Source: Ashinkailepas kermadecensis
Lineage: Eukaryota; Arthropoda; Thecostraca; Neolepadidae
DNA: 64,000 bases
Assembly (NCBI GenBank): GCA_034440615.1
Contig: JAOTOM010004318.1
Location: forward strand, 104,501-168,500
Direction: 5' to 3'
In this document: positions 905 through 39,930 of the stretch, one piece after another
Layout: every line of letters begins with the position of its first letter
How positions within the stretch are numbered: the stretch's first letter is position 1
Notes under the pieces: generated by a model
Databases searched by the model: none
What the model saw: only the letters and a program-made list of their open reading frames with translations
What the model was told of the DNA's origin: nothing
Made by a program: the position numbers and the translations under genes

Positions 905-1914
905 TGACCTCGACTCGACTACACCCACCCACTACACCTGACTACATGACTACACCTGCAGCCTACCTGTCAGCATCGACTCGACTACACCCACCCACTA
1001 CACCTGACTACATGACTACACCTGCAGCCCACCTGTCAGCATCGACTCGACTACACACATCCACTACACCTGACTACATGACTACACCTGCAGCCCACCT
1101 GTCAACATCGACTCGACTACACCCACCTACTACACCTGACTACACCTGCAGCCCACCTGTCAGCATCGACTCGACTACACACACCCACTACACCTGACTA
1201 CATGACTACACCTGTGGCCCACCTGTCATCATCGACTTGACTACACACATCCACTACACCTGACTACATGACTACACCCGCAGCCCACCTGCCAACATCG
1301 ACTCGACTACACACACCCACTACACCTACAGCCCACCTGTCAGCATCGACTCGACTACACACACCCACTACATGACTACACCTGCAGCCCACCTGTCAGC
1401 ATCGACTCGACTACACACATCCACTACACCTGACTACATGACTACACCTGCAGCCCACCTGTCAGCATCGACTCGACTACACACACCCACTACACCTGCA
1501 GCCCACCTGTCAGCATCGACTCGACTACACACACACACTACACCTACAGCCCACCTGTCAGCATCGACTCGACTACACACATCCACTACACCTGACTACA
1601 TGACTACACCTGCAGCCCACCTGTCAGCATCGACTCGACTACACACATCCACTACACCTGACTACATGACTACACCTGCAGCCCACCTGTCAGCATCGAC
1701 TCGACTACACACACCCACTACACCTGCAGCCCACCTGCCAACATCGACTCGACTACACACACCCACTACACCTACAGCCCACCTGTCAGCATCGACTCGA
1801 CTACACACATCCACTACACCTGACTACATGACTACACCTGCAGCCCACCTGTCAGCATCGACTCGACTACACACATCCACTACACCTGACTACATGACTA
1901 CACCTGCAGCCCAC
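905..1914. repeat. 66/48-bp minisatellite made of copies of an exon end and donor site
   Basis: The array has about 16 units of 66 bp or 48 bp; the shorter form lacks an 18-bp block. It abuts the 3' end of ATP13A exon 8. On the minus strand nearly every unit repeats the last exon bases plus the splice donor: GAGTCGATGCTGACAG followed by GTGGGCTGC. Variants include TGGCAGGTGGGC and TGACAGGTAGGC. Both unit lengths are multiples of three, which keeps a long plus-strand frame open, but I regard that frame as a by-product. Confidence 0.92.
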
Positions 1915-2046
1915 CTGTCAGCATCGACTCGTTGACAATGCACGAGCCCGCCACTAGCACGGCATCACAGACCATGGCGCAACCGCCCTCGGGCAGCACC
2001 AGCACGTCCCCCGGCACCAGCCGCTCCGTCCCCACCTCTGCCACCT
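1915..2046 (-). CDS. ATP13A: P5B-type transport ATPase, exon 8 (actuator domain)
   Basis: This exon encodes the core of the actuator (A) domain of a P5B ATPase. These are endolysosomal membrane pumps; vertebrate ATP13A2 exports polyamines from lysosomes. The 44 codons read [19 protein letters not shown], then [17 protein letters not shown] and IVNESMLT. They contain the LVPGD motif, the CDA-L block and the NES-LTG motif typical of the family. The TGES dephosphorylation loop is split by the intron after the G. The acceptor is GGTGTTGCAG and the donor is ACAG|GTGGGC. The exon takes one base from exon 7 and ends in phase 1, so the two join without a gap. An AGGTGGCAGAGGTGG duplication at its start offers a second in-frame acceptor. 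Confidence 0.94.
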
Positions 2047-2175
2047 CTGCAACACCAGAGGTCAGGTCAGGTCACGTCCCCCGGCACCAGCCGCTCCGCC
2101 CCCCCCCTTCCCTATGCCACTTCTGTAATACCAGAGGCCAGGTCAGGTCAAGTCTCTGTAATAAAGAGGCCAGGT
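2047..2175 (-). repeat. Degenerate duplicate of the exon 8 acceptor and exon start
   Basis: Upstream of exon 8 on the minus strand lies a second, decayed copy of the same edge. It has a CCTCTGGTATTACAG acceptor, then a spacer, then CGGAGCGGCTGGTGCCGGGG, the same bases that encode ERLVPG in the exon. The copy breaks off at GACGTGACC just before the real acceptor. A further CTGACCTGACCTCTG repeat resembles branch-site sequence. It looks like a fossil of the duplication process that built the larger arrays. Confidence 0.75.
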
Positions 2176-2273
2176 CAACACCATGCCTACTTATATATTG
2201 GCACATATACCCTTACTTACGACCAGATGATGTATACCATATACCATACACCAGGTATGGCACATGCAGCAAA

Positions 2274-2538
2274 GATTCACGGCACGACATTTATCGCGGC
2301 TCAATAGGTGGCTTATGGCACTTACCACATATAAGTACAATATATATATATATATATATGGTTTATTTTACTTTAAATATACTGACCGTTCTCGAAGCTA
2401 GTGAGAATGAGATTCACGACACGACATTTCTCGCGGCTCAATAGGTGGCTTATGGCACTTACCACATATAAGTACAAAATATATATATATATGGTTTATT
2501 TTACTTTAAATATGCTGACCGTTTTCGAAGCTAGTGAG
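2274..2538. repeat. 137-bp direct repeat, two copies with (AT)n
   Basis: The blocks 2274-2410 and 2411-2538 are near-identical. Each contains tcgcggctcaataggtggct, an (AT)n tract (2339-2360 and 2479-2492) and a gaagctagtgag ending. A SINE tail fragment follows the second copy. Confidence 0.9.
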
Positions 2539-2598
2539 GTTGGTTGGTTATTGGTTTTACGACACGTCGACCGTTGAGTCATATAGCGTCGCCAATCT
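2539..2598 (-). mobile_element. 5'-truncated SINE (tail only) with target-site duplication
   Basis: These 60 bp match the 3' part of the SINE copies at 3423, 4301, 43399 and 46779, and lack the tRNA-like head. The insert is flanked by exact 12-bp repeats gaagctagtgag at 2527-2538 and 2599-2610. That marks it as a retrotransposed, 5'-truncated copy. Confidence 0.9.
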
Positions 2599-2616
2599 GA
2601 AGCTAGTGAGATTCCT

Positions 2617-2712
2617 TCATCGATATTGCATGGGGGTCGTGAGGTTCATCAGTCAATATTGCATGGGGGTCGTGACATTCATGAGTCAATATTTCATGCG
2701 GATTGTGAGGTT
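2617..2712. repeat. 33-bp tandem repeat, 3 copies
   Basis: Three diverging copies of a unit containing atattgcatgggggtcgtga, with starts 33 bp apart (2623, 2656, 2689). Confidence 0.8.
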
Positions 2713-3409
2713 CGAGCAAATATTTTGCGAGTCGTGTTTCATACATGCACACATACATCAATTAATTTCATTAAAAAACAAACAGAAAAATCAGGTACAA
2801 ATTGCAGCAATCGGTGCAAGAGTGGTGGTGCGCTGGAGTCTGGGCACCGTTTGCAGTACGGTTGTTGTCATTTCGCCACCACCGAACACGCCGCGGTAGC
2901 CTTGCAGTAATGCAAGAAACGAGCCCCCCGCAACCAACTGTCGCCTGAAACGCTGCCGACCAAGAAATGCCGACAATGCTGTTCCTGTCTGAATTTAGCG
3001 GTGACATGAATGAATCTATGGACACTTCGTGCTACTGAGAAGCCATTTCAGTCACTCACGCTCCGTCCATGGCGTACGCTATTCATTTTGATCTTCGATG
3101 GAAGGTTTGCAAAGGTCCCGCTCATCATATTGGTGAATGAGTTGTTCTCTAAGCAGTGTATTGTGGATAGTGTAAGGAATAGTTCGGTGTGTTCGCTTTG
3201 ATGCCTACATGCGCAGTGTGGTGGTGTTGTATTTGAAATTGCTTCTTTTTGCATTTTAAACGCGTGGGAATTTAGGGGAGACATAGTGATTCTGCGTTTT
3301 GCCAATAAGGAATTTGATAGCTTTGAACCCAATGCGCAATATTTAGGAGGTTTTTATTTTAAACGTTTTATTGATATTGTCTTAAGCTCGTTATGCTTCC
3401 TGGAAGTTC
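2713..3409. other. Intron sequence without recognised feature
   Basis: This lies inside the ATP13A intron between exons 8 and 7. No exon, RNA or repeat that I recognise is present. The short open frames on both strands have no family resemblance. Confidence 0.5.
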
Positions 3410-3422
3410 ATTCCATGATCTG

Positions 3423-3587
3423 GTTGGTTATTGGTTTTTCTTTACAACACGTCGACCGTTGAGTCATGTAGCGTCGCCAATCTCTCACGCCGATTGGTCG
3501 CGGGCGAAGAGTAGCGACAGGTGAGACTCGAACCCACAACCTTTCGATTGTGAGACGAGCATCTTACCCATAGACCACTCGTCCCCC
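3423..3587 (-). mobile_element. Full-length tRNA-derived SINE with target-site duplication
   Basis: On the minus strand the element begins GGGGACGAGTGGTCTA, a tRNA-like head with an A-box-like TGGTCTA block. A B-box GGGTTCGAGTC and a CGACCAATCGGCGTGAGAG core follow. The tail ends CCAATAACCAACC. The head resembles tRNA-Val (CTCAC anticodon-loop region). Exact 13-bp repeats attccatgatctg flank it at 3410-3422 and 3588-3600. The tail carries a small insertion (tttttcttt) compared with the other copies. Confidence 0.93.
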
Positions 3588-3600
3588 ATTCCATGATCTG

Positions 3601-4300
3601 ATTACATTGGGAAGGAAAGACGTGAGAAAGCCGTCTAGCTCTAGGTCGGGGATTCGAATATTTGGCATAGATGCGCGGCAACATGGTGTAACTCCGCCTC
3701 CTTCACAATGTACGTAGTGGGTGAATGGTTCACGAAAGTTGTCTCGTATACATATCAAGGTGTACGTTGTCGTTTAATTGTTTATTGACAGCGCAAATTA
3801 TGTGTATATAATTTAATTGAGTGAATTTCCGAAGTTCATCCAGTAGATTTGTTGCAGACAGCGAATATTAACATCAGCAATATTCAGAGATTTTCTTGCA
3901 GTCACGGGACCGGGATTGGTCGAACACCTCCGATTACGAGTAAAGTGCCAACATCATGGTATTTATTCACTCGGTCCCACATGCTGCTTGTTGCATACAA
4001 TGCAATGTTGACGATCGGACGGGCTGCGCACATGGCAGCGCTGTGACGTCACTGACACCCGCTCCCCCATCCGGGGTGTCCGGACGGTCCCACTCGGCAG
4101 GCGGACGTCTCGGAGGGACCTGCCAGCTGCACACAGCTCCTGTTTTCTAGCGTAGAACACGAATATTGCCGTGAAATCTGGCGGCTTCTCTCACCTGGTG
4201 CGGTCGATACGATTCGCACTGTCAACACCAACGTCGCACTCCGGGGCGGATGTCACAGCCGATGGCAGCTCTGAGCTCCAGCACCAGGTTGATGGGGGAC
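3601..4300. other. Intron sequence without recognised feature
   Basis: Part of the ATP13A exon 8-7 intron. It is GC-richer around 4000-4290. Short minus-strand frames there show no similarity I recognise and are not needed by the phase of the flanking exons. Confidence 0.5.
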
Positions 4301-4462
4301 TTGGTTGGTTATTGGTTTTACGACACGTCGACCGTTGAGTCATATAGCGTCGCCAATCTCTCACGCCGATTGGTCGCGGGCGAAGAGTAGCGACAGGTGA
4401 GACTCGAACCCACAACCTTTCGATTGTGAGACGAGCATCTTACCCCTAGACCACTCGTCCCC
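4301..4462 (-). mobile_element. Full-length tRNA-derived SINE
   Basis: Nearly identical to the copies at 3423, 43399 and 46779, with tRNA-like head, B-box GGGTTCGAGTC, shared core and CCAATAACCAACC tail. I could not find clear flanking duplications here, so the ends may have been altered after insertion. The unexplained open frame at 4463-4640 stops against this element. Confidence 0.9.
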
Positions 4463-4704
4463 TGTTCAAGGTTGCTGACTTTCATCTGCTGCTCTGTGAC
4501 ATTATTCAGGTGCGCCGTCTCCTCCCGCTGTCGGTGCTCCGACCGCATCCCCAGCCCGGCCACAGCCTGAGCCACGGTCGGCTCTATGAGCTCGGCATTC
4601 ACCACACTAATTAACTCCTCGTCCTTCAGACTCCCTTCAGAAACCGTGAAATGCGAGATAATTCAGTCGCAATAATTAACATCCACTTCACCTGAGAGCC
4701 TTGG

Positions 4705-4862
4705 ATTCTTTGATAACGTATTCGCCTGCTGGATCATACAACGTCACCAACCTCCCACTCTGATTGGTCGAGGCTGGACTCGGTAATCCTGCCAGTTGCG
4801 GGATTCGAACCCACGATCTTGCGATCGAGGTTCAAGCACCCTACCGACTGAGCTACTGCGAC
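4705..4862 (-). mobile_element. SINE of the same superfamily with a different tRNA-like head
   Basis: The minus strand starts GGTCGCAGTAGCTCAGTCGG, an A-box typical of tRNAs, and has a B-box GGGTTCGAATCCC. A core follows (CGACCAATCAGAGTGGGAGG) that is homologous to the core of the 3423-type SINEs. The tail differs. The flanks share only a weak ttcttt match. The copy at 32387 has the same head type. Confidence 0.85.
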
Positions 4863-5250
4863 CTTCTTTTCATCACGGCCCGTTTCGGTTGTAAGATCAT
4901 GAAGACGCTTGGTCGACTTCGTTTGACGTCATAGTGGGTCTTGGCCTGGTAAATCTTCATTCTACAAAAAAATTCAGGGGTAAGATTTGGCTTGGTAAGA
5001 TACTACGAAAAATGATTTTCAGGAAGCTACTATGCATGGTATATGTGGATGCCGGTATTGTAGACAATGCCATGTGCGAAATCTAAGATCCATGCACAAT
5101 ACACGAATACGTCTCACTGAAACTGGCACTCCATTTCGAAACTGGCATGAGTGAACGGCGTAAAAGTAAGCATATTACGGCGACATATGGCCAACGCGGA
5201 CATTGTCACATCTAGACAGGACGTCTCACGCTGGCCTCTAATCACGTACC
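4863..5250. other. Intron sequence without recognised feature
   Basis: Between the SINE at 4705 and the array beside exon 7. I see nothing to annotate. Confidence 0.5.
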
Positions 5251-5254
5251 GATG

Positions 5255-5475
5255 AGGGTGGCCTCCATTGACCTACCACCAGCGGTGAGCCCAGTGACAC
5301 CTACCTCCTCAGGGACGCCGCACAGTGGCCTACCACCAGCGGTGATCCCAGTGATACCTACCTCCTCAGGGACGCAGCACAGTGACGTACTACCAGCGGT
5401 GATCCCAGTGACACCTACCTCCTCCGGGACGCCGCACAGTGACCTACCACCAGCGGTGATCCCAGCGACACCTAC
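5255..5475. repeat. 57-bp minisatellite carrying copies of the exon 7 donor site
   Basis: About four units, abutting the donor of ATP13A exon 7. On the minus strand each unit repeats the exon end and donor, CTGTGCGGCGTCCCTGAGGAG then GTAGGTGTCACTGGG. The true junction reads CGGCGTCCCGGAGGAG|GTAGGTGTCGC. Three extra donors are visible at about 5298, 5356 and 5418. The unit is a multiple of three, so the plus strand stays open over 5252-5596. Confidence 0.92.
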
Positions 5476-5548
5476 CTCCTCCGGGACGCCGCACAGTGGC
5501 GGTGCTGACGGCCGATGCCACCACCATGTTCCGGAGGGCCTCACTTTG
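5476..5548 (-). CDS. ATP13A: P5B-type transport ATPase, exon 7
   Basis: Encodes 24 codons, QSEALRNMVVASAVSTATVR then RPGG. This is the conserved start of the cytosolic actuator domain just after the second membrane helix of the core; vertebrate proteins have QSQTLRDMV followed by a VCRPGG block at this place. The acceptor is GGTCGGCAG|CAA and the donor GGAG|GTAGGT. The exon starts in phase 0 after the AAG end of exon 6 and ends in phase 1, matching exon 8. Minisatellite arrays on both sides repeat its own edges. Confidence 0.93.
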
Positions 5549-5555
5549 CTGCCGA

Positions 5556-6165
5556 CCACAACACACACCGCTCAACACCACAGCAGCCGACCATAACACA
5601 CACCATTCAACACCACAGCAGCCGACCATAACACACACTACTCAACACCACAGCCGCCAACAACACACACCACTCAACACCACAGCAGCCGACCATAACA
5701 CACACCACTCAACACTACGACCGCCAACAACACACACCGCTCAACACCACAGCAGCCAACAACACACACCGCTCAACACCACAGCCGCCAACAACACACA
5801 CCGCTCAACACCACAGCAGCCAACAACACACACCGCTCAACACCACAGCCGCCAACAACACACACCGCTCAACACTACGACCGCCAACAACACACACCAC
5901 TCAACACCACAGCAGCCAATAACACACACCATTCAACACCACAGCTGCCAACAACACACACCGCTTAACACCACAGCAGCCAACAACACACACCGCTCAA
6001 CACCACAGCCGCCAACAACACACACCGCTCAACACTACGACCGCCAACAACACACACCACTCAACACCACAGCAGCCAATAACACACACCATTCAACACC
6101 ACAGCTGCCAACAACACACACCGCTTAACACCACAGCAGCCAACAACACACACCACTCAACACAA
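5556..6165. repeat. 32-bp minisatellite, about 19 copies, with 160-bp higher-order unit
   Basis: The unit is close to aacacacaccgctcaacacc plus acagcagcc, with a 32-bp period (for example 5769 and 5801). Blocks 5871-5980 and 6031-6140 are identical at an offset of exactly 160 bp, so a five-unit block was duplicated as a whole. On the minus strand the units resemble the GT-rich run that leads into the exon 7 acceptor (TGTGTGTTGTGGTCGGCAG), so the array probably grew from the end of the intron. Confidence 0.92.
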
Positions 6166-6576
6166 CAGCCGCCGAGCGCCACGAGTCGACACATGAAACA
6201 AATAAGCACTGTCGACGTCACCACAGACGATGCGGAGCGCACCGCAGACCAGACGACACCGCCTGCGGAGCGCATAGCAGACCATCACCTTTAGCTCCAA
6301 TAGCGGAATTATACCAAGGCAAACAACTGTCTTGCTCTCGGCGGATTCTGAACAACACAACCAGCGCACACACCCAGCTGGAAACACCACCCAGCCACCC
6401 GGACCCGGCACGCAACGACCATGGGCTCTCCAGTCTCCGCCTAATCCACGGCTTGGCCGCAAAAGGCCGTCGTCGGGTGGGGCACGACACGGACCATCCA
6501 GCCGCTTTGCTTACGATTTTTCCCGTCGCCGCCCCGATCGCCAACGAAACGAAACCTGCTCGGTCGTGCGACCCAC

Positions 6577-6684
6577 CTTTCTGGTCTCGTATAATGAGAC
6601 GCTGATGGAGATGACGGAGATGACGAAGATGCAGGTGGCGTAGATCACGTAGTCGTCGAGCGCCCACAGGATCAGACTTGCCGC
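6577..6684 (-). CDS. ATP13A: P5B-type transport ATPase, exon 6 (membrane helix)
   Basis: 36 codons, AASLILWALDDYVIYATCIF then VISVISISVSLYETRK. The segment is strongly hydrophobic and fits the membrane helices before the actuator domain; vertebrate ATP13A2 has FSIALWLADHYYWYALCIF and a similar SISICLSLYKTRK end. The acceptor is CGTTTTAG and the donor AAAG|GTGGGT. Both ends are phase 0. No array adjoins this exon, so the pattern seen at exons 7 and 8 is not universal. Confidence 0.95.
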
Positions 6685-6904
6685 CTAAAACGACCGGGAT
6701 CGGGCAGATCAAGCTCAGCCGCGCTTGGCTATCGGACTCGTGTTGAATCTTTCACAGACCAGAACAACGGCAAAATAATCGCTCGTGCACTGCAACAAAC
6801 CAAACACACGCGGGTGGCCACAACACATGCCCTCACTCCTATCAGACAAACGTTCATTCCATCTTCGAACACGAGCGTAATGTGCGGTGACACAAATTGT
6901 GTAC

Positions 6905-7001
6905 CTGGAAAATGTAGAACGGGTTGAGAGCCTCTTCCACGAGAAGACGGAGGTAGGACTTGACCTCCACAACGATGCGGTTTTCCCCATACAGCGATAT
7001 C
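6905..7001 (-). CDS. ATP13A: P5B-type transport ATPase, exon 5
   Basis: 33 codons, (R)ISLYGENRIVVEVKSYLRL then LVEEALNPFYIFQ. This is the cation-ATPase N-terminal segment, with the YG-N-I block and the conserved LNPFY-FQ motif. The first base completes the AG left by exon 4 to give Arg. The acceptor is TGGACAG and the donor CCAG|GTACAC. It ends in phase 0 and joins exon 6 directly. Confidence 0.95.
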
Positions 7002-7073
7002 CTGTCCAGCGAGGAGTTGGTAATCTAGGTCAGTTAGGCAGTCGGTCAGTGACGGTTGACGCATCAGTTGTGT

Positions 7074-7115
7074 GGTGGTGGATTTGTGCTTTAGGGCGCG
7101 TCGACTGCATTGGTC
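7074..7115 (-). mobile_element. Probable SINE tail fragment
   Basis: The sequence gctttagggcgcgtcgactg and the following cattggtcat match the 3' part of the SINE superfamily (compare 7408-7449 and 58010-58068). I see no target-site duplication. Confidence 0.5.
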
Positions 7116-7407
7116 ATTTTTGTGAAAATCTATATTACACCAGATATCTTCACACGAATACCAGCTATAGTGGTGCTGAAATATCACGCTCATACCATGT
7201 ATGTGGCTTCCCAGTTCTTTTCAAATATCTATTCCCTCCTAGTGTCATATGCTAGGTATACAATCAATGCATGCACCCACCATCCCTCCAATCAATTGAA
7301 CAAAATGCCGGCTCCGCTCCACGCTACAACAGGCATACACGAGCCAGTAGCCAGCCGCAGTCGTCACCGACGGGGTACAAAGCCCGTCTGATCTGACTTT
7401 ACCTAGT

Positions 7408-7449
7408 TAGTTAGTTACTTGGGTTTTAGGGCGCACCGACTGCATTGGA
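7408..7449 (-). mobile_element. 42-bp SINE tail with perfect 13-bp target-site duplication
   Basis: A very short insert with the tail motif tacttgggttttagggcgca is flanked by exact repeats gactttacctagt at 7395-7407 and 7450-7462. It is an extreme 5' truncation of a SINE in minus orientation. Confidence 0.85.
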
Positions 7450-7703
7450 GACTTTACCTAGTGCACACCAGTAAGCATAACGCTAAAGTAATTCGAGCAC
7501 ATGGTTTGCTGGGGGGGGGACGTGTCCACAATTCCCCAGCCTGGCTATGGACCCGGGTACGTGGCTGCTGCATGCATACGACACGACACATGCCAGCGCC
7601 CAGTCAACACCAGATGGAGAGGTCCGCACCGGCCACGAAGCACACGGCACAGTGCCGGTCTTACAGTGCCGGCCAGCGGCCCGCGGCCGGCGACACCACC
7701 GAC

Positions 7704-7858: not shown

Positions 7859-7956
7859 CTGGGTGAGACGTTAGCGCTGCTGAGGACAACACACAGTGCC
7901 GCGCGGCAATAACCAGCTGTGTGTCAGCTGTGCTGTCAGTGCTGTGAGGCTCAGGT

Positions 7957-11270: not shown

Positions 11271-11423
11271 CTCGTCCCGACCGGGCTGCGGCAGCAGCGG
11301 ACTGCTGTCGGCCGCCTCCGAGCCGGCGTCCAGCGAGACGGCGCCGAGTCTGAACGGTGCCGGCGTGTCGGCGCCGGCCGGCTCCCGGATCACCGGCTCC
11401 ACGCACGTCCCACCGTGCAGATC
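11271..11423 (-). CDS. ATP13A: P5B-type transport ATPase, exon 3
   Basis: 51 codons from DLHGGTCVEPVIREPAGADT to DSSPLLPQPGRDE. This is the variable cytosolic linker after the N-terminal hydrophobic region of P5B ATPases, so identity rests on position and phase more than on conserved residues. The acceptor is TGCGTCAG|GAT and the donor GACGAG|GTCAGT. Both ends are phase 0, fitting the AAG end of exon 2 and the GGA start of exon 4. Its acceptor is copied seven times in the adjoining array. Confidence 0.85.
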
Positions 11424-11668
11424 CTGACGCAGCACCACACTCGGTCAGGTTGTGGATCCTGACGCAGCAGCACACTCGGTCAGGTTGTAGATCCTGACGC
11501 AGCAGCACACCCGGTCAGGTTGTAGATCGTGACGCAGCACCACACCCGGTCAGGTTGTAGATCCTGACGCAGCACCACACTCGGTCAGGTTGTAGATCCT
11601 GACGCAGCACCACACCCGGTCAGGTTGTAGATCCTGACGCAGCACCACACTCTTAGGTGTGGACCTCG
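11424..11668. repeat. 35-bp minisatellite made of copies of the exon 3 acceptor
   Basis: Seven units, with gatcctgacgcag at 11420 (the real junction), 11455, 11490, 11525 (gatcgtgacg), 11560, 11595 and 11630. On the minus strand each unit reads ACCTGACCGAGTGTGGTGCT then GCGTCAG|GATC. Thus each carries a branch-site-like CTGAC, a GT-rich tract, the CAG acceptor and the first four exon bases. Confidence 0.94.
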
Positions 11669-11785
11669 GAATGTGGCACCGAGTGGCAAATCGTCCGACA
11701 ACCACTTGCGCCCGGTGCTGCAAGTGGCCAGGAGGCACTGAACAGTGAGCTCCCACACAATACCATCACCTGTTGACACGACGGT

Positions 11786-11950
11786 GGTTCACCTGCCCAT
11801 GTCCCCCACCACCTGCACAGACCAAGTGACCCACCTACCCATGTCTCCCACCACCCTAACAGGGAAGTGACCCACCTACCCAGTATCCCACCACCCTCAC
11901 AGAGAAGTGACCCACCTGCCCAGTCCCCCACCACCCTCACAGAGCGAGAG
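11786..11950. repeat. About 41-bp minisatellite, 4 copies
   Basis: Units contain gacccacctgcccatgtccc and caccaccctcacagagaagt. The array lies about 50 bp past the exon 2 donor. On the minus strand it is G-rich with GGGTGGTGGGGGA runs. I do not see a clear copy of the exon edge. Confidence 0.85.
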
Positions 11951-11999
11951 CGTGCCTTCCACCACCCTCCAGGAGACAGACGGCCGGCCGCGTGCAGAC

Positions 12000-12262
12000 C
12001 TTGACGAGCACGGCGGTGGCGCAGCGCAGCGGGCAGCGCCGATGTGTCAGTCGCAGCCGCCAGGCGGGTCGCCAGTGGGTGACCAGCAGCGGCACCAGAG
12101 CCAGAGCCGCCGAGGCCAGCCAGAACAGCGCCGTCAGCAGCGAGCTGCGTCGGTAGCCGGCCGCGGTCAGCTGGTCGTCGGTGCCGGCGCCGATCACGGC
12201 GCAGTGATGCAGACCGTCGCCGCGCGCCAGCGGCTCGTACCTGCCCGACACAGCAACACAGT
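12000..12262 (-). CDS. ATP13A: P5B-type transport ATPase, exon 2 (N-terminal membrane segment)
   Basis: Encodes RYEPLARGDGLHHCAVIGAG, then TDDQLTAAGYRRSSLLTALF, WLASAALALVPLLVTHWRP and AWRLRLTHRRCPLRCATAVL ending VK. The long hydrophobic helix, the W-P-W block and the C-L-A--VL motif are typical of the N-terminal P5-ATPase domain. The donor is CAAG|GTCTGC in phase 0. Two acceptors are possible. ACTCAG|ACTGTG (exon start 12262) fits the phase of the candidate exon 1. GGGCAG|GTACGAG (start 12240) has the better pyrimidine/GT tract but would need an extra exon. Confidence 0.9.
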
Positions 12263-17548: not shown

Positions 17549-17549
17549 T

Positions 17550-27329: not shown

Positions 27330-27715
27330 ACGCTGCCGTGTGGGAGCCCGCGATATCCCTCTCCCCGGGGCCTCCGCTGTTGTCTTCCAGTCATCGCTGC
27401 CGTGTGGGACCCCGCGATATCCCTCACTCCCCGGAGCCTCCGCTGTTGTCTTCCAGTCATCGCTGCCGTGTGGGACCCCGCGATATCCCTCACTCCCGGG
27501 GCCTCCGCTGTTGTCTTCCAGTCATCGCTGCCGTGTGGGACCCTGCGATATCCCTCACTCCCTGGGGCCTCCGCCGCCCTCCTCCAGTCATCGCTGCCGT
27601 GTGGGACCCCGCGATGTTCCGCACTCCCAAGGGCCTCCGCACTTGTCTTCAGTCATGGCTCCGCTGTGTGGAACCCCGCACTTTCCGGGGCGTCCGCTGT
27701 CGTCTGCCAGTCATC
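27330..27715. repeat. 66-bp minisatellite, about 6 copies
   Basis: Units contain cgctgccgtgtgggaccccg, cgatatccctcactcc and ttgtcttccagtcat. Copies of cgctgccgtg start at about 27329, 27395, 27461, 27526 and 27592; the last unit is degenerate. On the minus strand GTGAGGGATATCG resembles a donor, and on the plus strand tgttgtcttccag resembles an acceptor. I found no exon at either edge. Confidence 0.9.
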
Positions 27716-28380: not shown

Positions 28381-28466
28381 CTAGGACGGTGGCGCCATCT
28401 CTTGATATTTGGATATAACCTGGCCCAGTCGTGGGTCGTCCACAGCCGCGTCGGTGAACATACAGC
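28381..28466 (-). CDS. MMADHC: MMADHC (cblD), last coding exon
   Basis: 27 codons, CMFTDAAVDDPRLGQVISKY then QEMAPPS and a TAG stop. This is the C-terminal tail of MMADHC, the adaptor that works with MMACHC to direct cobalamin to methionine synthase in the cytosol or to methylmalonyl-CoA mutase in mitochondria. The family tail has a G-(S/C)-(I/M)-FT start and ends a few residues after a lysine-rich helix. The acceptor is CCCCGCAG. The first two bases complete the Gly codon started by the previous exon. Five extra acceptor copies lie just upstream. Confidence 0.88.
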
Positions 28467-28640
28467 CTGCGGGGTAACGGAGTGTGAGGACACAGCCTAC
28501 GGGGGACACGGTGGGTAACACACAGCCTGTGGGGGCAGACACCGTGAACATACGGCCCGTGGGAACCGGGGAAGAGTATACATACAGCCTGCGGAAACGA
28601 GGGGTAAGCATACAGCTTGTGAGTGAAGTGAACACATCTA
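28467..28640. repeat. Imperfect about 30-bp repeats copying the last-exon acceptor
   Basis: On the minus strand the real junction CCCCGCAG|GCTGTATGTTCAC is followed upstream by CCCCCGTAGGCTGTGTCCTC, CCCCACAGGCTGTGTGTTAC, CCCACGGGCCGTATGTTCAC, TTCCGCAGGCTGTATGTATA and an ACAAGCTGTATGCTTACC copy. At least three keep a usable AG acceptor plus exon bases. Confidence 0.85.
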
Positions 28641-29239: not shown

Positions 29240-29416
29240 CAGAGCAAACCTGCTGGATACTAATAAATGGCTGCCCCAGGAGAGCCCACCACGTGCCTCT
29301 GAACACGTGGCTGTCTCGGGTGCGCCCGCCACGTACTTCTGAACACGAGGTTGCCCCAGGAGAGACTACGACGTGCCTCTGGACACGTGGCTGTCCCAGG
29401 TGAGCTCAACACACAC
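29240..29416. repeat. About 51-bp repeats copying the exon E end
   Basis: On the minus strand three diverged units contain GACAGCCACGTGTTCAGAGG or close variants. They match the exon end GGGACAGCCACGTGTTCGTAG but with the donor GT decayed or displaced. The array adjoins the donor of MMADHC exon E. Confidence 0.8.
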
Positions 29417-29660
29417 CTACGAACACGTGGCTGTCCCAGACGGCGTGGCGGATGACCTTGCAGCAGCCCAGATCGTCGATGGTGAAGCCGAGTCGCGCCA
29501 GCCGCTCGTCCGTCTCGACGAGGCAGTCGTCGTCGGCGTCGGCGTCGTCGGCGGGCAGCAGGGCGCCGATGTGGGGACGGCCCGAGCGCGGGTCCACCAG
29601 GTCCGCCCAGAAGCCCAGCTGGCGCAGACCCAGCACGATGTCCTTGGCAACGTCCACAAA
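29417..29660 (-). CDS. MMADHC: MMADHC (cblD), penultimate exon (core domain)
   Basis: 81 codons plus one base. They include FVDVAKDIVLGLRQLGFWAD, LVDPRSGRPHIGALLP, VETDERLARLGFTIDDLGCC and KVIRHAVWDSHVFV. This is the diagnostic heart of MMADHC: G(F/Y)WADF-DP-SG, FETDER, LGF--DDLGCCKVIRH. A cysteine of the GCC motif has been implicated in cobalt ligation in the MMACHC-MMADHC complex, and both cysteines are kept. Between GRPHIGA and VETDER there are about eight more residues than in vertebrates, mostly Asp and Ala. The acceptor is CCCCACAG|TTT and the donor GTAG|GTGTGT. Phases are 0 and 1. Confidence 0.95.
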
Positions 29661-29822
29661 CTGTGGGGCAGGCGGACGGGGTAGCGGTTACCGACTGCCG
29701 CATGTCACGTCCACAAACTGTGGGGCAGGCGGACGGGGTAGCGGTTACCGACTGCCGCATGTCACGTCCACAAACTGTGGGACAGGCGGACGGGGTAGCG
29801 GTTACCGACTGTTGCACGTCCA
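29661..29822. repeat. 57-bp repeats copying the exon E acceptor
   Basis: cgtccacaaactgtgggg occurs at the junction (29651) and again at 29708 and 29765. On the minus strand each unit carries CCCCACAG|TTTGTGGACG, that is, the acceptor plus the codons for FVD. The units are otherwise nearly identical. Confidence 0.92.
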
Positions 29823-31430: not shown

Positions 31431-31497
31431 ACTCCGCTGGTTGTTTTGCGTAATAGCTGCATGCTGGAGAGGCAACGTCTGACCGCCAGCGACTCAC

Positions 31498-31634
31498 GTG
31501 CGTGGCCAGCTCCGCCCGCTCCGAGTCGATCTCCTCACTCCAAGTGGCCATGTCGCTGTCGGTCTTCTGACTGACGACCAGAACAGTCAGCCGGCCGGCG
31601 GTGACGTCACGCTCCGTGAACAGCGTCCGGAACT
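31498..31634 (-). CDS. MMADHC: MMADHC (cblD), exon D
   Basis: Two bases complete a Glu codon. Then come 45 codons: FRTLFTERDVTAGRLTVLVV, SQKTDSDMATWSEEIDSERA and ELATH. Vertebrate MMADHC has F-SLFPE, GKLMILTVTQKT, NDMTVWSEEV and EREVL in the same order. The acceptor is GTCGGGCAG or CGGGCAG|AGTTCC and the donor GCAC|GTGAGT. It ends in phase 0 and joins exon E (TTT) directly. Confidence 0.95.
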
Positions 31635-31830
31635 CTGCCCGATCGGCGACACTGGTCAACACCATCTGAACAGCCGCAGCGTCCGGAACTCTGCCCGACC
31701 GCCGGCACTGGTCAACACCATCTGAACAGCGTCCGGAACTCTGCCCGACCGTCGGCACTGGTCAACACCATCTGAACAGCGTCCGGAACTCTGCCCGACC
31801 GTCGGCACTGGTCAACACCACCGTCACACG
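31635..31830. repeat. 50-bp repeats copying the exon D acceptor
   Basis: gtccggaactctgcccgac recurs at about 31681, 31731 and 31781 with a 50-bp period. On the minus strand each unit holds GGTCGGGCAG|AGTTCCGGACG then CTGTTCA, which is the acceptor plus the first codons (EFRTLF). Confidence 0.93.
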
Positions 31831-31834
31831 CGGT

Positions 31835-32385: not shown

Positions 32386-32386
32386 T

Positions 32387-33385: not shown

Positions 33386-33469
33386 TGCAGACGCCCACCG
33401 AGGCATAACACACTGGCCCAGAGCATGCCAACCAACAGACTCCGACCGCCGACCGTTCAGGTCAGACAC

Positions 33470-33612
33470 ACGTCTCCAGCCGACCACCCTGCGACACAGC
33501 CGGCCACCCTGCGACACGGTCTGTTACCATGCGACACAGCCTTCTCCGCCACCCTGCGACACAGCCGGCCACCCTGCGACACGACCGACCACCCTGCGAC
33601 ACAGCCGCGCCT
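33470..33612. repeat. About 20-bp minisatellite beside exon C donor
   Basis: Units of the type accctgcgacacagccggcc repeat six to seven times and end at the donor of MMADHC exon C. The cgacacagc motif also occurs at the other edge of the exon (33771-33779). I see no full copy of the donor. Confidence 0.85.
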
Positions 33613-33619
33613 CACGCAC

Positions 33620-33766
33620 CGTCCTTCAGCAGCTGTGGGCAGTCGTGCACCTGGATCTCCAGCAGGACGGTGTCGGCCGGCGGCGACGACGGTGACGGCG
33701 CGCCGCCGCCGCCTCGTCGTCGGACCTCAGCTGGTCCAGTGATGGCGTCAGGAAGGCCATCACCGC
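33620..33766 (-). CDS. MMADHC: MMADHC (cblD), exon C
   Basis: The 3' half reads ADTVLLEIQVHDCPQLLKD and corresponds to the vertebrate VECAIQTCPELLRKD block. The donor is GACG|GTGCGT (phase 1), joining exon D to give LLKD-E-FRTLF. The acceptor is GTCGCCAG. The 5' half is ambiguous. The frame continuous with the 3' half is open but unlike the family. The other frame reads AVMAFLTPSLDQLRSDDE, which resembles the vertebrate FVMAQYVNEF block. A GCG/CGC run lies between the two frames, so a one-base indel or assembly error is possible. Confidence 0.82.
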
Positions 33767-33779
33767 CTGGCGACACAGC

Positions 33780-34260
33780 GACCATTGTCACCGACAGATC
33801 TGCACCTGCACTCTTAGCACGATCCTGCAGCAGAAGCGGAACAAAAATCCTCTATGGGTTTTTTTTAGCTTGCTTGCTATGAATCCTACGACAAATTGGC
33901 GCTTAGACCGTGACAAACAACTTCGAACAAGCCATGTCACTCATCGTGAGCATTGGAAGAAACATTGACGAATATGCACTCGGAATTGAATTTTCCCATC
34001 TTCACATTATTACATACAGGTATATTGGTGTTCATAATACACGGAGGAACCAGACATATCGCGTGGAGTTTTCTTCAAGTTAATGCGTAACAATGAAACA
34101 ACATAAAGACATTGACATGCAAAAATGCACATACAAAATATTGAAAAAGAAACATCTGACTGAATATAGGATTCGCCGTGATTCAGAAGACCGTCCACAG
34201 CTTCACACTTCAGGGGTCCGATACACGGTTCCTGTATGCAGTTCTACCTTCTAATTGTTA
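33780..34260. other. MMADHC intron, nothing recognised
   Basis: No exon or known repeat seen before the LINE 3' end. Confidence 0.5.
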
Positions 34261-34261
34261 C

Positions 34262-37200
34262 ATCATGACATAGACATAGACATAGACATTTATTAGAACC
34301 TTCCACAACACATTCGTGGCTATTACGATTCCTCGTCTTGTAGATAAACCGATAAGAGTAGGATACAATTTTGTTAAAACACTGCGATGACAACCATTCC
34401 AAATTCACATTCTCACCAGTCTCACATAACACCAGGCAATAACTAACTCATGCCAAACATATCCATCAAGATGGCCTGATATGCCGTTTCAGCGCCGCAC
34501 CAAACCGTGACACTGGCAGTTCTCTCAGGTCCTGAGGTAATACGTTATAAAGAGCAGCTGCTCTCACTTGGAACCGCCTTTTTCCCATTTCCGTTCTACA
34601 TCTGGGCAGGTAGAGATCGCTAGCATGTCTAGATACTGACTGCCTCTGGCTGACCTGGCCTACAGTATGAAAGGTCAGAGCGAGCTGTTCCGGCTCTCCA
34701 AAGCGACGAAGCTTGTGCAGGACAGTTAGACAGTGATAGTTAGCCAACTCACTCGCTGTCAGCCACCCCAGTCTCACCAACAGGTCTGAAACGTGGTCAA
34801 ATTTCCTGCGTCCGAAGATTACTTTAGCCGCAAAATTTAGAATTTTTTGGATTCGGGAAATGTTTTGGAGAGTACCGCTGCCATATATGGAAATACAGTA
34901 GCGAACCTGGGAAATCACCAGGGCAGTGACCAGCGTTGTAATGATGCCCGTCGGGAGGTTGTGCTTCAGATGTGATAGATCACATAGAATTCCAAAACAG
35001 CGCCTAGTGATGAGGGAGACATGAGAGTTCCAGGAGAGGTTGCAATCGAACATGAGACCAAGATTCTTTGCTTCTGAGCACGTATGGAGGATTTGATCGC
35101 GGAAGTTCACTGTGATGTCCGAAATGTTGCGTAAATTTTGCTGGCTGCCCAACAGAAGTAGCTGGGTTTTATCAGCATTCACTTTCAACCCATTCGCGCA
35201 AAACCAGATGTCGAGAGAGGCTAAGACGTGTTCGAGATGTGATTTCAGAGACGAAATCTCGGATTTTTTGCCGCTAACTAAAATTTGGGTGTCATCAGCG
35301 TACTGCACAACCACAGCATCCTCAACGAAGAGGCTGAGGTCGTTGGCAAAGAGGCTGTAAAGGAGAGGGCCGAGACAAGAGCCTTGAAAAATTCCTATGT
35401 TGTTTTGGAGCATAGAAGATGTTTTGGTAGTGCCTAATCTGTCTGTGATTCTTACGCTTTGGGTATGATCCTTTAGATAAGCCGAAAACCAAGAAGTATC
35501 GATACCATGAGCGCCCAATTTTGAGAGTAATTTGGCATGGTCTATCACATCGAAACACTTACTCAAATCGAGCAGGCATAGGAGAGATATATCCCCACGG
35601 TCGTTGGCGGATAGGATGTGGTCAGTTATGGTTATCAGCGCGGTTTCAGTGGAGTGGCGGGGACGGAAACCATGCTGATTGGGAGCTAGGAGGTGGTTGC
35701 GGGACAGGTAGCCGTAGAGTTGCTGATGAACAGCCCGCTCAACAATTTTGGCAATCGTTGGAACCAAAGAGATAGGACGGTAGGAGGATGCTTTGGAAGG
35801 GTCGCCAGACTTGAAGATCGGAAGTACTAGGGAGTGTTTCCAGGAGTTAGGAACGTCAGCGTTGTATAGGCAGGAGTTGACCATGTGAAGATATATCTCT
35901 CCTAAAACCTCAAAAGTCAGCCAAACAATGCGTGTGGAGATTCCGTCAGGTCCGGGAGAAGAGGATCCATTCATCCCGAAAACAATGGTTCGCAATTCGG
36001 ACAGCGTCAAAGGTACAAGTGAAAACGCACAAGCACCCACCCTGGGGAGGCGACATACGAGGTCGGGCGGATCCACCTGCCCAGCTATCTCAGCTGCTAC
36101 CCGAGGACCCACCCCAACGAAGTAAGCATTCAATTCGTCAGGCGACGCAGAAGGGATGACACGTTTACTTTTGTTGCGAGCGACTGTAGTTTCAATGTTT
36201 TTCCAAGTAGAATTGGGCCCCCCCTCAAAGATACGCCTTTCTATGTCCGATCTGGTATCACTTCTGACGGCCGAACAAACAGCACTATTCAAATGCTTTT
36301 ATAACGCAGAGTTATGGCCTCCCACTGCCAGAGCTTCCCTGCGTCGGCTCATGAGATCTCTGGTATCTTCTGAGACCGCTGGGGCAGTTGGGTTTCTAAT
36401 CTTAACCGAGCGAATGGGGGCATGCGCGTCCAAAACCGGCAAAAAAATGGCCAAAAAATATTCCCACTGTTCAGAAACACTCGCGGATAGACAAACATCG
36501 CTCCAATCCTGCGATAGTAGATCATTATGAAAGTGTTGCACGTCAATGCGGCGGAGACAACGGGTTCGAACAGTAACAGCAGACGGTCACCACTTTGGTA
36601 TTGAGAGATAGGCACGCACGAATTTGTGAGGACTAAAGTGACAAAATTTTGTCCCGCAGCGGGTGACAAGATCGGCGTGATTGACAACCAAAATATCTAA
36701 CAGAGAACCGGTCGCATAAGTACAGTCAGTAACGCATTGATGCAGGCCGAAATCATTCAAGAACTCACCGAGATGCTTCCTGGCGCAATCACTGACCGGC
36801 TTTAAAAAATCAGAGTTCAAATCGCCTATCACCACTATCTTCACACCAGGAAAATCAATCAAAATGCGCTGGTACTGAGCTTCTAAATCAGCAAAGTCCG
36901 CGCTGATATCTGCCACTCCCCGGCGCGGCGGCCGGTACACTACTGCGACAATCAGCTGGCGCCTACCGTCCGGTTTAATCAGGGTCCATAGGGTCTCGAG
37001 GCGGCTGTTGGCAGGTCATTCCCCTGTAGCTGGCTTGATGGTAGTGGTATCAAAACCATCTCGGACCACCAACGCCACTCCGCCGTACCCGCTGCCATCC
37101 GGCCGGTCGGATCGGTACAAAGTATAACCCATCGTCACCAGCAGTCGACTAGGTGTTGAAGGGCGTAGCCAGGTCTCGCCAATTCCAAACACGTCAAAAC

Positions 37201-37955
37201 TGTGTCGATGAAGCTCGTAGGTAAGCTCCAGTAATTTGGGTTTCAGCGATTGTACATTTACAAACCCGATCAGAAGGGTGGTGTTCGCTGGCCGCTTACT
37301 CCACCTGAAGCCGCCTCTGCTACCACGACGCCGCGTACCACGGCCGCCGCGGCTACCCCGCTTAGTGCCGCCGCTACGTTGACCGGTCCGACCCGACCCG
37401 GCGTCAGCTGACACGGGGTGGGCGGGGCCACGAGTCGGCGACCGACCGGAACGATCGGCCCGGGGCGCGGACGATCCAAGGTCACGCATGGGGCCAGGTA
37501 CCAAGGGCGATGCATGACAGTGATTGATGGCTGGAGAAACAACCAAAACGACGATTTTGAGAATAGCTAGGAGTGCGATCAGCTTGGCGATGTCCCGGTG
37601 GACGATGGGGTGAAAGATTTGCATGATGACTCCCCAGGGCACGCTGAGTCCAGAAGAAAATGGAGGCGGAGTTGCAGCTCTCCTCAATCTCGATGCTAGG
37701 GGTTCTCGGACAAGCACCATAAACTCAATAAAATGCCAGTTGCCACTTGCCAATGCCAGTAGTCCAGTTGCCCACTCACGCAACCACACGGTACCAATTA
37801 CTCCGTACAGTCACACTAAAAGGCGCGCGGTAGATAAAATATGGTTAGGACGGACGGAGCGCCGCGGCCGCGCAGCCTGTCACTGGCGCGCGGTGCAGGC
37901 AAACGAAACATGCAGGCAACATGCAGAACATAATAAAGTCAAGGACTAGGAGACG
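34262..37955 (-). mobile_element. Near-complete non-LTR retrotransposon (CR1/Jockey-like LINE)
   Basis: The element lies in an MMADHC intron in the same orientation as the gene. On the minus strand it has a GC-rich leader, one long reading frame and a short 3' UTR. The UTR ends AATAAATGTCTATGTCTATG, that is, a polyadenylation-type signal followed by a three-to-four-unit hexamer repeat, as in CR1-type elements that end in short repeats instead of poly(A). The 5' end (near 37955) is approximate. I found no flanking duplication. Confidence 0.88.
34466..37720 (-). pseudogene. LINE endonuclease-reverse transcriptase, single frame with three stops
   Basis: From an ATG at 37720 one frame runs 1085 codons to the TAA at 34466, with no frameshift. 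It is broken only by TGA (37016-37018), TGA (36587-36589) and TAA (36299-36301). In order it has a hydrophobic stretch (LIALLAILKIVVLVV), an Arg/Gly-rich stretch (37300-37430), an apurinic-type endonuclease (GETWL; VVYRPP; GDLNSDF) and the reverse transcriptase. RT motifs are SSYRPISL, LLDLSKCFD, QGSCLGPLLYSLFANDL and YADD (35291-35302), and the C-terminal end resembles ALYNVLPQDLR. The final endonuclease motif is SPH, not the usual SDH. The last 608 codons are uninterrupted. Confidence 0.92.
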
Positions 37956-38049
37956 GATATAAATCAAACACCACAGAGCAGGCACAGTTCCTGTCGTGAA
38001 TGGATGATACAACTGCTAATAAACGTTGCAGATGCGACGGTTTTTAACA

Positions 38050-38553
38050 GACGTGAACACCACTGATTGCCATGTGTCTGTCGTGGCACAGTTGTGTCAC
38101 TACACAACTGTAGCAGACCTGACCGGACAGGTGTAGCAGACCTGACCTCTGAGGTTGACCCTCACTGGCCGCCATGTGTCTGTCGTGGTATAGCTGTGTA
38201 GTGACCCGACCTCTGAGGCTGACCCTCACTGACCGCCATGTGTCTGTCGTGGTACAGCTGTGTAGTGACCCGACCTCTGAGGCTGACCCTCACTGACCGC
38301 CATGTGTCTGTCGTGGTACAGTTGTGTAGTGACCTGACCTCTGAGGCTGACCCTCACTGACCGCCATGTGTCTGTCGTGGTACAGCTGTGTAGTGACCCG
38401 ACCTCTGAGGCTGACCCTCACTGACCGCCATGTGTCTGTCGTGGTACAGCTGTGTAGTGACCCGACCTCTGAGGCTGACCCTCACTGACCGCCATGTGTC
38501 TGTCGTGGTACAGCTGTGTAGTGACCCGACCTCTGAGGCTGACCCTCACTGAC
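38050..38553. repeat. 64-bp minisatellite copying the end of MMADHC exon B
   Basis: About eight units, with cgccatgtgtctgtcgtgg at 38171, 38234, 38298, 38362, 38426, 38490 and 38554. On the minus strand each unit reads GTACCACGACAGACACATGG, then CG|GTCAGTGAGGG. That is the candidate exon end (YHDRHMA) plus a donor-like GTCAGTGAG. The first two units near 38070 and 38171 are more diverged. Confidence 0.93.
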
Positions 38554-38741
38554 CGCCATGTGTCTGTCGTGGTACAGCTGTGTAGTGCCGTCGTGACCTG
38601 GCCGGCCGAGTGCTGGCGGCGGCAGCGGCGGTGCAGACGCCGGCGCCAGCTCCTCAGCTAGTCCAACAGCCCCGGGCAGCGGCAGTCGCTTATCCGTGTC
38701 ACCCAGCAGGTCGCTGGCCGGGGAAGGCCACAGGTGTCGCA
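38554..38741 (-). CDS. MMADHC: MMADHC (cblD), exon B
   Basis: Reads (V)RHLWPSPASDLLGDTDKR, LPLPGAVGLAEELAPASAPP, LPPPALGRPGHDGTTQLYHD and RHMA. Vertebrate MMADHC has [20 protein letters not shown] followed by PGNIGF, so the WP, the basic residue and the LPG-(A/I)-G block match. The acceptor is GGGCGACAG, phase-compatible with exon A. Two donors are possible: GCG|GTCAGT at 38554 (phase 0, gives a DRHMA-AVMA junction like ERHEFVMA) or CCAG|GTCACG at 38598 (phase 1, keeps exon C in one frame). I favour the first on homology and because the array copies it. Confidence 0.84.
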
Positions 38742-38910
38742 CTGTCGCCCGCAGACGGCGCGTCACACAGTGGAGGGCGAACCACGCACAGCGAACAGCA
38801 GGCGCCACACAGTGGAGGGCGAACCACACACAGGGAACAGCAGGCGTCACACAGTGGAGGGCGAACCACACACAGGGAACAGCGAGCGTCACACGCGGGA
38901 GAGGGCGCGT
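38742..38910. repeat. About 44-bp minisatellite beside the exon B acceptor
   Basis: Units contain acacagtggagggcgaacca and caca-ggaacagcaggcgtc, three to four copies. It adjoins the acceptor of exon B but I do not see the CGACAG junction itself repeated. Confidence 0.85.
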
Positions 38911-39335
38911 CACATGGAGAAGAGGCAGCGTCACACAGGGACAATTGGGCATACCACGGAGACAGGGAAGATACACGAGGGAGAGGAGACACCACATGGA
39001 GCACTACGGGAGAAAGTAGCGGAAAAAAAACCCAAGAAAAACATTGAAGTGACTGCATTCATTGCAATACCTGGGCAAAATCATGCTTTCTCCACGTCAG
39101 GCTTTTAAGTTCATAACACGAAATACGACACAGAAACATCGCTGTAGATAACCAGAAAGTATAAATGGAACGGACCGATTTCATATACGCATCATCCAGT
39201 CGAGAACACTGCGACCACAGGCCCGTCTCTTAAACTAAGTTGCAGAGAGTGCACATACCTCACCCTTGTGCTACTCTGCAGAACAAGGTTGCATCATATC
39301 AGGAGAGTATCTTCTGGCATGGTCTTTAGTACGCC
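38911..39335. other. MMADHC intron, nothing recognised
   Basis: No exon or element seen. Confidence 0.5.
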
Positions 39336-39339
39336 TTAG

Positions 39340-39669
39340 AATATGTTGGAGGTTTCACCAATGATGAAACGACACCCCTGCAGAGCAACTCCAGCTGGAA
39401 GCCCAGTCTGGGCGGTAGCAGTGCCGGACGTACCTCGCTATGAGTGGAGACTACACCACTGCAGAACCGCCCCAGGTGGAAGCCCAGTCTGTGCGGTAGC
39501 AGTGCCGGACTTACCTCGCCATGAGTGAGACCACACCACTGCAGAACCGCCCCAGCTGGAAGCCCAGTCTGGGCGGTAGCCGGACTTACCTCGCCATGAG
39601 TGAGACCACACCACTGCAGAACCACCCCAGCTGGAAGCCCAGTCTGGGCGGCGGCAGTGCCGGACGTAC
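39340..39669. repeat. 75-81-bp minisatellite copying the exon A donor
   Basis: About four units contain agctggaagcccagtctggg. On the minus strand the true junction CCAAG|GTACGTCCGG is repeated as CGAG|GTACGTCCGG (39427), CGAG|GTAAGTCCGG (39508) and CGAG|GTAAGTCCGG (39583). The last two are closer to the consensus donor than the real one. Confidence 0.93.
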
Positions 39670-39793
39670 CTTGGACGGCGGTGTCGCCGTCCTGACCGAC
39701 ATCGTCCTTGGTGCACAGCAGGCGCAGACTGGCGCTGATCTGGCGTAGGGTTTGTCCATACAGGACGGCCGTCCTCCGGCCGGGGCTGAACAG
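39670..39793 (-). CDS. MMADHC: MMADHC (cblD), N-terminal exon A
   Basis: 41 codons plus one base: LFSPGRRTAVLYGQTLRQIS, ASLRLLCTKDDVGQDGDTAV and Q. It has several Arg and no acidic residue in its first half, as expected for the mitochondrial targeting region of MMADHC. This region is poorly conserved, so assignment rests on colinearity and phase: the final G plus TG of exon B gives Val before RHLWP. The acceptor is CCCGGCAG and the donor CAAG|GTACGT. An upstream exon with the start codon is expected; I did not find it. Confidence 0.7.
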
Positions 39794-39930
39794 CTGCCGG
39801 GGGCGTCAGGTCAGCCACGGGGTAACATACAGGACAGCCGCCGCCAGCCGGGGCTGAACAGCTGCCGGGGACGTCAGGTCAGCCACGGGGTAACATACAG
39901 GACAGCCGCCGCCAGGTCAGATCAGCCACG
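39794..39930. repeat. About 67-bp repeat copying the exon A acceptor and start
   Basis: ggggctgaacagctgccggg occurs at the junction (about 39783) and at about 39850, and a partial third unit follows. On the minus strand the copy reads CCCCGGCAG|CTGTTCAGCCC and continues into GCTGTCCTGTATG, parallel to the exon (GCCGTCCTGTATG). Confidence 0.88.

What the first reader, a model, noticed from the sequence alone, without database searches (positions are those of the whole stretch)
905..39930. Minisatellites beside exons are tandem copies of the exon edge, with duplicated splice sites, in two unrelated genes
At nine or more exon edges in ATP13A and MMADHC the adjoining array unit is a copy of the edge: splice site, neighbouring intron and part of the exon. 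Donor edges: ATP13A exons 7 and 8, MMADHC A and B. Acceptor edges: ATP13A exon 3 and, degenerate, exon 8; MMADHC A, D, E and F. This suggests a genome-wide process in this species that nucleates tandem duplication at exon-intron borders. It multiplies usable splice sites, lengthens introns and could feed intron gain or alternative splicing. I know of no described system with this regularity.
Basis: partly seen in the sequence, partly recalled or inferred. Interest (0 to 1): 0.88.

Follow-up and report, generated by a model that had tools for sequence, protein, structure and literature searches.

The report
Exon-edge tandem repeats in barnacle genes
In two genes of a barnacle-like animal, short stretches straddling exon edges have been copied in tandem, splice signal included; lancelets are known to do the same, so the kind is not new, but here it is dense and one intron may have been born this way.

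Summary
With exon models built from homologues, 10 of 27 exon edges (ATP13A2-like 4 of 16, MMADHC 6 of 11) adjoin an array whose unit copies the edge: 5-44 exon nucleotides, splice site and intron. Four more edges have an array within 20 nt. Of 20 arrays in the two genes, 11 contain an exon junction; random placement gives 1.6, at most 6 in 1500 trials. Placement limited to GC-rich DNA gives 4.8-6.4 (p 0.001-0.013); then MMADHC alone stays significant, ATP13A does not. The animal is a barnacle or near relative (MMADHC 71-73% identical to two barnacles). 'No described system' is wrong: lancelet 'mirages' are this structure. Most likely, short tandem duplications straddling exon edges are tolerated because each copy brings its own splice site, then expand as intronic minisatellites. 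Genome-wide extent and active nucleation are untested. Using a distal copy would break the frame or add a stop in 42 of 45 copies. New lead: the two ends of ATP13A intron X1-X2 match at 19 of 22 positions, as for an intron born by tandem duplication.

The parts
910..1931 (-). Array (66- and 48-bp units) copying the donor edge of ATP13A exon X8 (last exon base 1915); 17 exon nt, 16 further copies, GT kept in all 16
1915..2046 (-). ATP13A exon X8 (VPGD...NESMLTG)
   Evidence: homologue alignment; coordinates
2003..2154 (-). 76-bp repeat copying the acceptor edge of X8; 44 exon nt; one full further copy, 69 of 82 identical
5269..5498 (-). 57-bp array copying the donor edge of ATP13A exon X7 (last exon base 5476); 22-25 exon nt, 3 further copies
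5476..5548 (-). ATP13A exon X7
5558..6173 (-). 32-bp array ending 10 nt from the acceptor of X7; no exon copy found
11419..11652 (-). 35-bp array copying the acceptor edge of ATP13A exon X2 (first exon base 11423); 4-8 exon nt, 6 further copies, AG kept in 5
11424..11999 (-). ATP13A intron X1-X2, 576 nt, 384 nt of it arrays; donor and acceptor flanks 19 of 22 alike; candidate intron born by tandem duplication
28457..28535 (-). Diverged 30-bp array copying the acceptor edge of MMADHC exon F (first exon base 28466); copies traced to 28589
29268..29439 (-).
29650..29811 (-). 57-bp array copying the acceptor edge of MMADHC exon E (first exon base 29660); 11 exon nt, 2 further copies
31617..31820 (-). 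50-bp array copying the acceptor edge of MMADHC exon D (first exon base 31634); 18 exon nt, 3 further copies
33477..33607 (-). Array 13 nt from the donor of MMADHC exon C; no exon copy found
38131..38587 (-). 64-bp array copying the donor edge of MMADHC exon B (last exon base 38554); 34 exon nt, 6 further copies
38760..38941 (-). 42/21-bp array 19 nt from the acceptor of MMADHC exon B; no exon copy found
39361..39671 (-). 75-80-bp array reaching the donor of MMADHC exon A (last exon base 39670); splice motif and intron copied, about 2 exon nt
39757..39915 (-). 68-bp repeat copying the acceptor edge of MMADHC exon A (first exon base 39793); 37 exon nt, one full further copy

Best explanation
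These are mirage-type minisatellites in a barnacle-like arthropod. A short tandem duplication (about 30-80 bp) arises with one end in an exon and the other in the neighbouring intron. It is tolerated because the duplicate carries its own splice site: the exon-proximal site still defines the exon, and all further copies fall into the intron. The intronic copies then multiply by slippage or unequal exchange, while the exon-proximal copy stays under protein constraint and acts as an anchor. Shown: the units, their places, the kept splice signals, no such repeat at 307 exon-interior positions, and an excess at edges. Inferred: tolerance through splicing, use of the proximal site, and the way of expansion. 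Why edges are favoured is only partly explained by GC-rich surroundings.
For: Junction-spanning copies at 10 of 27 edges; 11 of 20 arrays contain a junction against 1.6 by random placement; 0 of 307 exon-interior positions repeated; splice dinucleotide kept in 41 of 46 copies at a rate not clearly above other letters (87 of 92 against 1814 of 2023, Fisher p 0.16), as for passive copies; distal use breaks the frame or adds a stop in 42 of 45 copies; the exon side of the true copy agrees with its copies better than the intron side (459 against 430 of 484); the same structure is published for lancelets, with normal splicing.
Against: Tolerance alone does not predict an excess at edges over intron interiors; GC explains it for ATP13A but not for MMADHC. 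No RNA data, so use of the proximal site is unproven. Among the copies themselves the exon side is better kept in only 5 of 8 arrays, equal in 2, worse in 1.
Confidence: 0.7

Rival explanations
1. An active process nucleates tandem duplication at exon-intron borders, for example breaks at R-loops or polymerase pauses tied to co-transcriptional splicing, genome-wide in this lineage.
For: Excess at edges under random placement (0 of 1500 trials reach 11 of 20); MMADHC keeps it under GC-limited placement, 7 of 10 against 2.8 (p 0.001); array density falls from about 0.5 within 200 nt of an edge to 0.065 beyond 800 nt.
Against: Two genes only; 13 of 27 edges have no array; ATP13A shows no excess under GC-limited placement; coverage at edges is only 37% against 24%; no molecular trace of such a process was looked for.
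Confidence: 0.25
2. Arrays arise in GC-rich intron DNA generally; exons are GC-rich, so edges are hit by proximity alone.
For: GC-limited placement raises the expectation to 4.8-6.4 of 20 and fully covers ATP13A (p 0.47-0.62); edges of AT-richer exons X3, X5 and X6 carry no array.
Against: The combined result is still above that null (p 0.001-0.002; 0.001-0.013 with transposons left out); GC-rich edges X1, X2 donor and X4 donor carry none within 20 nt.
Confidence: 0.25
3. The introns themselves were born by tandem duplication of exon pieces, and the arrays are leftovers.
For: Intron X1-X2: donor and acceptor flanks 19 of 22 alike, top of 182 pairs, 0 of 4000 shuffles reach its score; 384 of 576 nt are arrays.
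Against: One of 12 introns; of the rest only E-F has a non-zero junction-spanning score, 14 against 28. The shuffles come within one point (27 against 28), and 12 of 182 pairs are same-intron pairs, so the top rank alone has a 6.6% chance. The gain itself is unproven without relatives.
Confidence: 0.12
4. The multiplied splice sites are kept by selection for alternative or buffered splicing.
For: Signals kept in 41 of 46 copies; at MMADHC exon F two distal copies with AG would keep the frame and add 10 or 20 codons.
Against: Splice letters are not kept clearly better than others (Fisher p 0.16); 42 of 45 distal copies break the frame or add a stop.
Confidence: 0.05
5. Assembly artefact: copies multiplied by mis-assembly.
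For: None direct here; a lancelet paper reports different copy numbers in two assemblies for such arrays, though re-sequencing argued against an error.
Against: Several arrays are diverged (E donor and F about 71-74% alike) and their units differ from each other, unlike a stitching error.
Confidence: 0.04

Closest known systems
Mirages of amphioxus (Adh3, globins BflGb6 and BflGb9, PGBD5, troponin C): PMC3087553 and PMC3902484, passages read; Canestro et al. 2002 (PMC117041), where the term is cited from, is not held
   Different: Another phylum; ten edges in two genes within 40 kb here; splicing and length instability were examined there but not here.
[quoted passage not shown] ATP2A1; a 24-bp AGGT repeat in fission yeast genes; potato RdRp): PMC4974935, passages read
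   Same: Tandem duplication supplies splice sites; intron X1-X2 has flanks as that model predicts.
   Different: Most arrays here lie at the edge of an intron that shows no such terminal similarity.
Intronic minisatellite CeRep25B near alternative exons of C. elegans: PMC4039745, passages read
   Same: Minisatellites in introns near exons, proposed to affect splicing.
   Different: A dispersed family; in the passages read, not copies of the neighbouring exon edge.

Membership tests
Mirage (amphioxus-type exon-edge minisatellite) | Tandem repeat unit spans an exon-intron border | tested here: met
   10 of 27 edges
Mirage (amphioxus-type exon-edge minisatellite) | Both 5' and 3' borders can be duplicated | tested here: met
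   4 donor and 6 acceptor edges
Mirage (amphioxus-type exon-edge minisatellite) | Many, not all, copies keep AG/GT | tested here: met
   41 of 46 copies
Mirage (amphioxus-type exon-edge minisatellite) | Regular splicing in spite of the copies | not testable with these tools
   No RNA data held
Mirage (amphioxus-type exon-edge minisatellite) | Length instability between alleles or cells | not testable with these tools
   One sequence only
Intron gain by tandem duplication (intron X1-X2) | Donor and acceptor flanks are copies of one segment with an AG|G junction | tested here: inconclusive
   19 of 22 alike, junctions within 1 nt of register, top of 182 pairs; shuffles reach 27 against 28
Intron gain by tandem duplication (intron X1-X2) | Intron absent at this place in relatives | not testable with these tools
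   No arthropod gene structures were reachable

The most novel reading that the evidence does not exclude
In barnacles a genome-wide mutational process preferentially starts tandem duplications at exon-intron borders, as in lancelets but independently. It continually rewrites intron ends and now and then gives birth to new introns, with ATP13A intron X1-X2 as a caught example.
Probability: 0.25. Interest if true: 0.75.

Novelty: new member of a known kind. Interest (0 to 1): 0.5.

Why it matters
In the papers that I could read, exon-edge minisatellites of this kind are reported from lancelets. Finding them densely in a barnacle-like arthropod suggests that they arise repeatedly in distant animals. 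They would be a natural laboratory for how cells choose one of many near-identical splice sites, and for the tandem-duplication route to new introns. Barnacle genome sequences exist, so a genome-wide scan could settle whether exon borders really nucleate them.

Tried and rejected
Chance: rejected by random placement of arrays (0 of 1500 trials; 0 of 2000 with transposons left out), but less firmly by GC-limited placement (p 0.001-0.013) and only weakly by simple coverage. Circular shift of all edges gave fractions from 0.0001 to 0.011, by score and padding.

Selection on the splice letters of the copies: not clear (Fisher p 0.16). Better conservation of the exon part among copies: 8 of 8 arrays with unequal lengths, but 5 better, 2 equal, 1 worse with equal lengths. 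True copy against its copies: 459 against 430 of 484 (Fisher p 0.0009, with letters that are not independent).

Other genes as a further sample: 20 of 184 ORFs of 70 aa or more outside the two genes were scanned and gave one Pfam hit, a reverse transcriptase, so no third gene was available. A Daphnia tandem-repeat paper held none of four splice terms. Ten paper searches showed no arthropod case in the titles and abstract starts listed; a prawn lectin paper with coding tandem repeats was listed but not opened.

Left out before counts: TRF units under 20 bp, and for the placement tests scores under 80; array 647-897 lies outside the gene span used. The X1 donor match is not among the ten edges, because it pairs with the X2 acceptor. 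One search misplaced one exon F copy by 1 nt and left out two arrays; one search replaces its frame count. Exon models rest on homology: X3 acceptor (phase does not fit), X1 acceptor and X4 donor are uncertain, and MMADHC exon C reads in two frames, so a 1-nt error or another acceptor is possible. None of the ten counted edges is among these.
Full report
What the window is. It carries two animal genes on the minus strand. One resembles polyamine-transporting ATPase 13A2 (best solved-structure match E 8e-19) and runs from about 12.3 kb towards the left end. The other is MMADHC/CblD (E 9e-17), from about 39.8 to 28.4 kb. The closest MMADHC proteins are those of the barnacles Amphibalanus amphitrite (71% identity) and Pollicipes pollicipes (73%). 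So the animal is a barnacle or a near relative; the species is not established.

Exon models. Homologue alignments with AG/GT borders give eight ATP13A exons and six MMADHC exons, 27 edges. Reading by eye, codon phases fit at most junctions; the uncertain edges are named under Tried and rejected, and none of them is among the ten edges counted below.

The observation. A local-alignment scan of the 120 nt around each edge against up to 1.5 kb on the intron side found junction-spanning copies at 10 of 27 edges at score 30 or more: donors of X7, X8, B and E; acceptors of X2, X8, A, D, E and F. The arrays reach 5-44 nt into the exon. Four further edges (X7 acceptor, A donor, B acceptor, C donor) have an array within 20 nt. 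At the A donor the splice motif is repeated but the exon hardly.

More than chance? Twenty arrays lie in the two gene spans (unit 20 bp or more, score 80 or more), and 11 contain a junction. Random placement, letting arrays reach up to 50 nt into exons, gives 1.56 on average and at most 6 in 1500 trials. With transposons left out it gives 2.16, at most 8 in 2000. With placement limited to GC of 0.55 or more the mean is 4.8 (p 0.001-0.002), or 6.4 with transposons left out (p 0.013; 0.001 when arrays within 20 nt count). Gene by gene under that limit MMADHC keeps its excess (7 of 10 against 2.8, p 0.001) and ATP13A does not (4 of 10 against 3.9, p 0.62). This null is strict, because the GC-rich stretches available are largely the arrays' own. 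Array density is 0.46-0.54 within 200 nt of an edge, 0.30 at 200-400, 0.23 at 400-800 and 0.065 beyond; part of the far class is a non-LTR retrotransposon in MMADHC intron B-C (reverse transcriptase E 3e-32). Against: by simple coverage, 192 of 800 random non-coding positions in the gene spans lie in a short-range repeat (24%), against 10 of 27 edges (37%), and 66 of 800 positions outside the genes (8%). Exon interiors give 0 of 307.

What the copies look like. The splice dinucleotide is kept in 41 of 46 copies, and 87 of 92 splice letters against 1814 of 2023 other letters (Fisher p 0.16), so selection on the copies is not shown. Copy donors match the general consensus (recalled) as well as the true donors at X7 and X8, and mostly a little less at E and A. 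If a distal copy replaced the proximal one, 42 of 45 copies in the ten arrays would shift the frame or bring a stop. The three exceptions are all at MMADHC exon F, where two copies that keep AG would add 10 or 20 codons. With equal lengths on both sides, true edges agree with their copies at 459 of 484 exon and 430 of 484 intron positions, as expected if only the exon side of the true copy is constrained.

Mechanism. A duplication lying wholly inside an exon would usually damage the protein. One that straddles the edge brings a second splice site with it and can be spliced away. This one-sided tolerance explains why exon sequence occurs in the arrays and why repeats reach into exons only by a few tens of bases. 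It does not by itself explain the excess at edges. High GC around exons, or an initiating process tied to transcription and splicing, could; the window cannot decide between them.

A possible intron birth. The donor flank and the acceptor flank of ATP13A intron X1-X2 match at 19 of 22 positions, with the two junctions within one base of register. This is the highest of 182 donor-acceptor pairs (12 of them same-intron pairs), and 0 of 4000 shuffles reach its score of 28, although the best reaches 27. The intron is 576 nt long, 384 of them arrays. [quoted passage not shown] It is one case without an intron-less relative, hence a lead.

Comparison with the known. [quoted passage not shown] PMC3902484 (passages) adds PGBD5 and names Adh and troponin C. 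The structure here meets the three mirage features that I could test; splicing and length instability could not be tested. The ten paper searches listed no arthropod case; the library holds open-licence papers only.

Verdict. The structure is real and well above chance under random placement. It is a new member of a known kind, in another phylum as far as I found. The genome-wide claim is open.

Noticed in passing
window 11414-11435 and 11991-12013 (-): The two ends of ATP13A intron X1-X2 are 19 of 22 alike: a candidate intron born by tandem duplication.
   Followed up: partly
window 28466-28589 (-): At MMADHC exon F two distal acceptor copies with AG keep the frame without a stop, so alternative acceptors adding 10 or 20 codons are possible.
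   Followed up: partly
window 647-897: A 40-bp array, 98% alike, lies 13 nt from the X8 donor array and shares short stretches with it by eye; the next ATP13A exon was not recognised in the window.
   Followed up: no
window 34469-37810 (-): Non-LTR retrotransposon with a 610-aa reverse-transcriptase ORF (RVT_1 E 3e-32) and endonuclease-like pieces just below the Pfam cut-off, inside MMADHC intron B-C.
   Followed up: partly
window 46841-47350 (-): A further reverse-transcriptase fragment (RVT_1 E 2.4e-09).
   Followed up: no
window 3511-3586, 4387-4462, 46864-46939 (-): Three tRNA-Val(CAC)-like sequences, possibly tRNA-derived SINEs; the third overlaps the reverse-transcriptase fragment.
   Followed up: no
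window 27331-27679 (+): A 66-bp array whose unit holds an acceptor-like TTGTCTTCCAG|TC on the + strand; no gene was recognised beside it.
   Followed up: partly
window 33620-33766 (-): MMADHC exon C reads in two frames, so there may be a 1-nt indel, an assembly error or a wrong acceptor.
   Followed up: no
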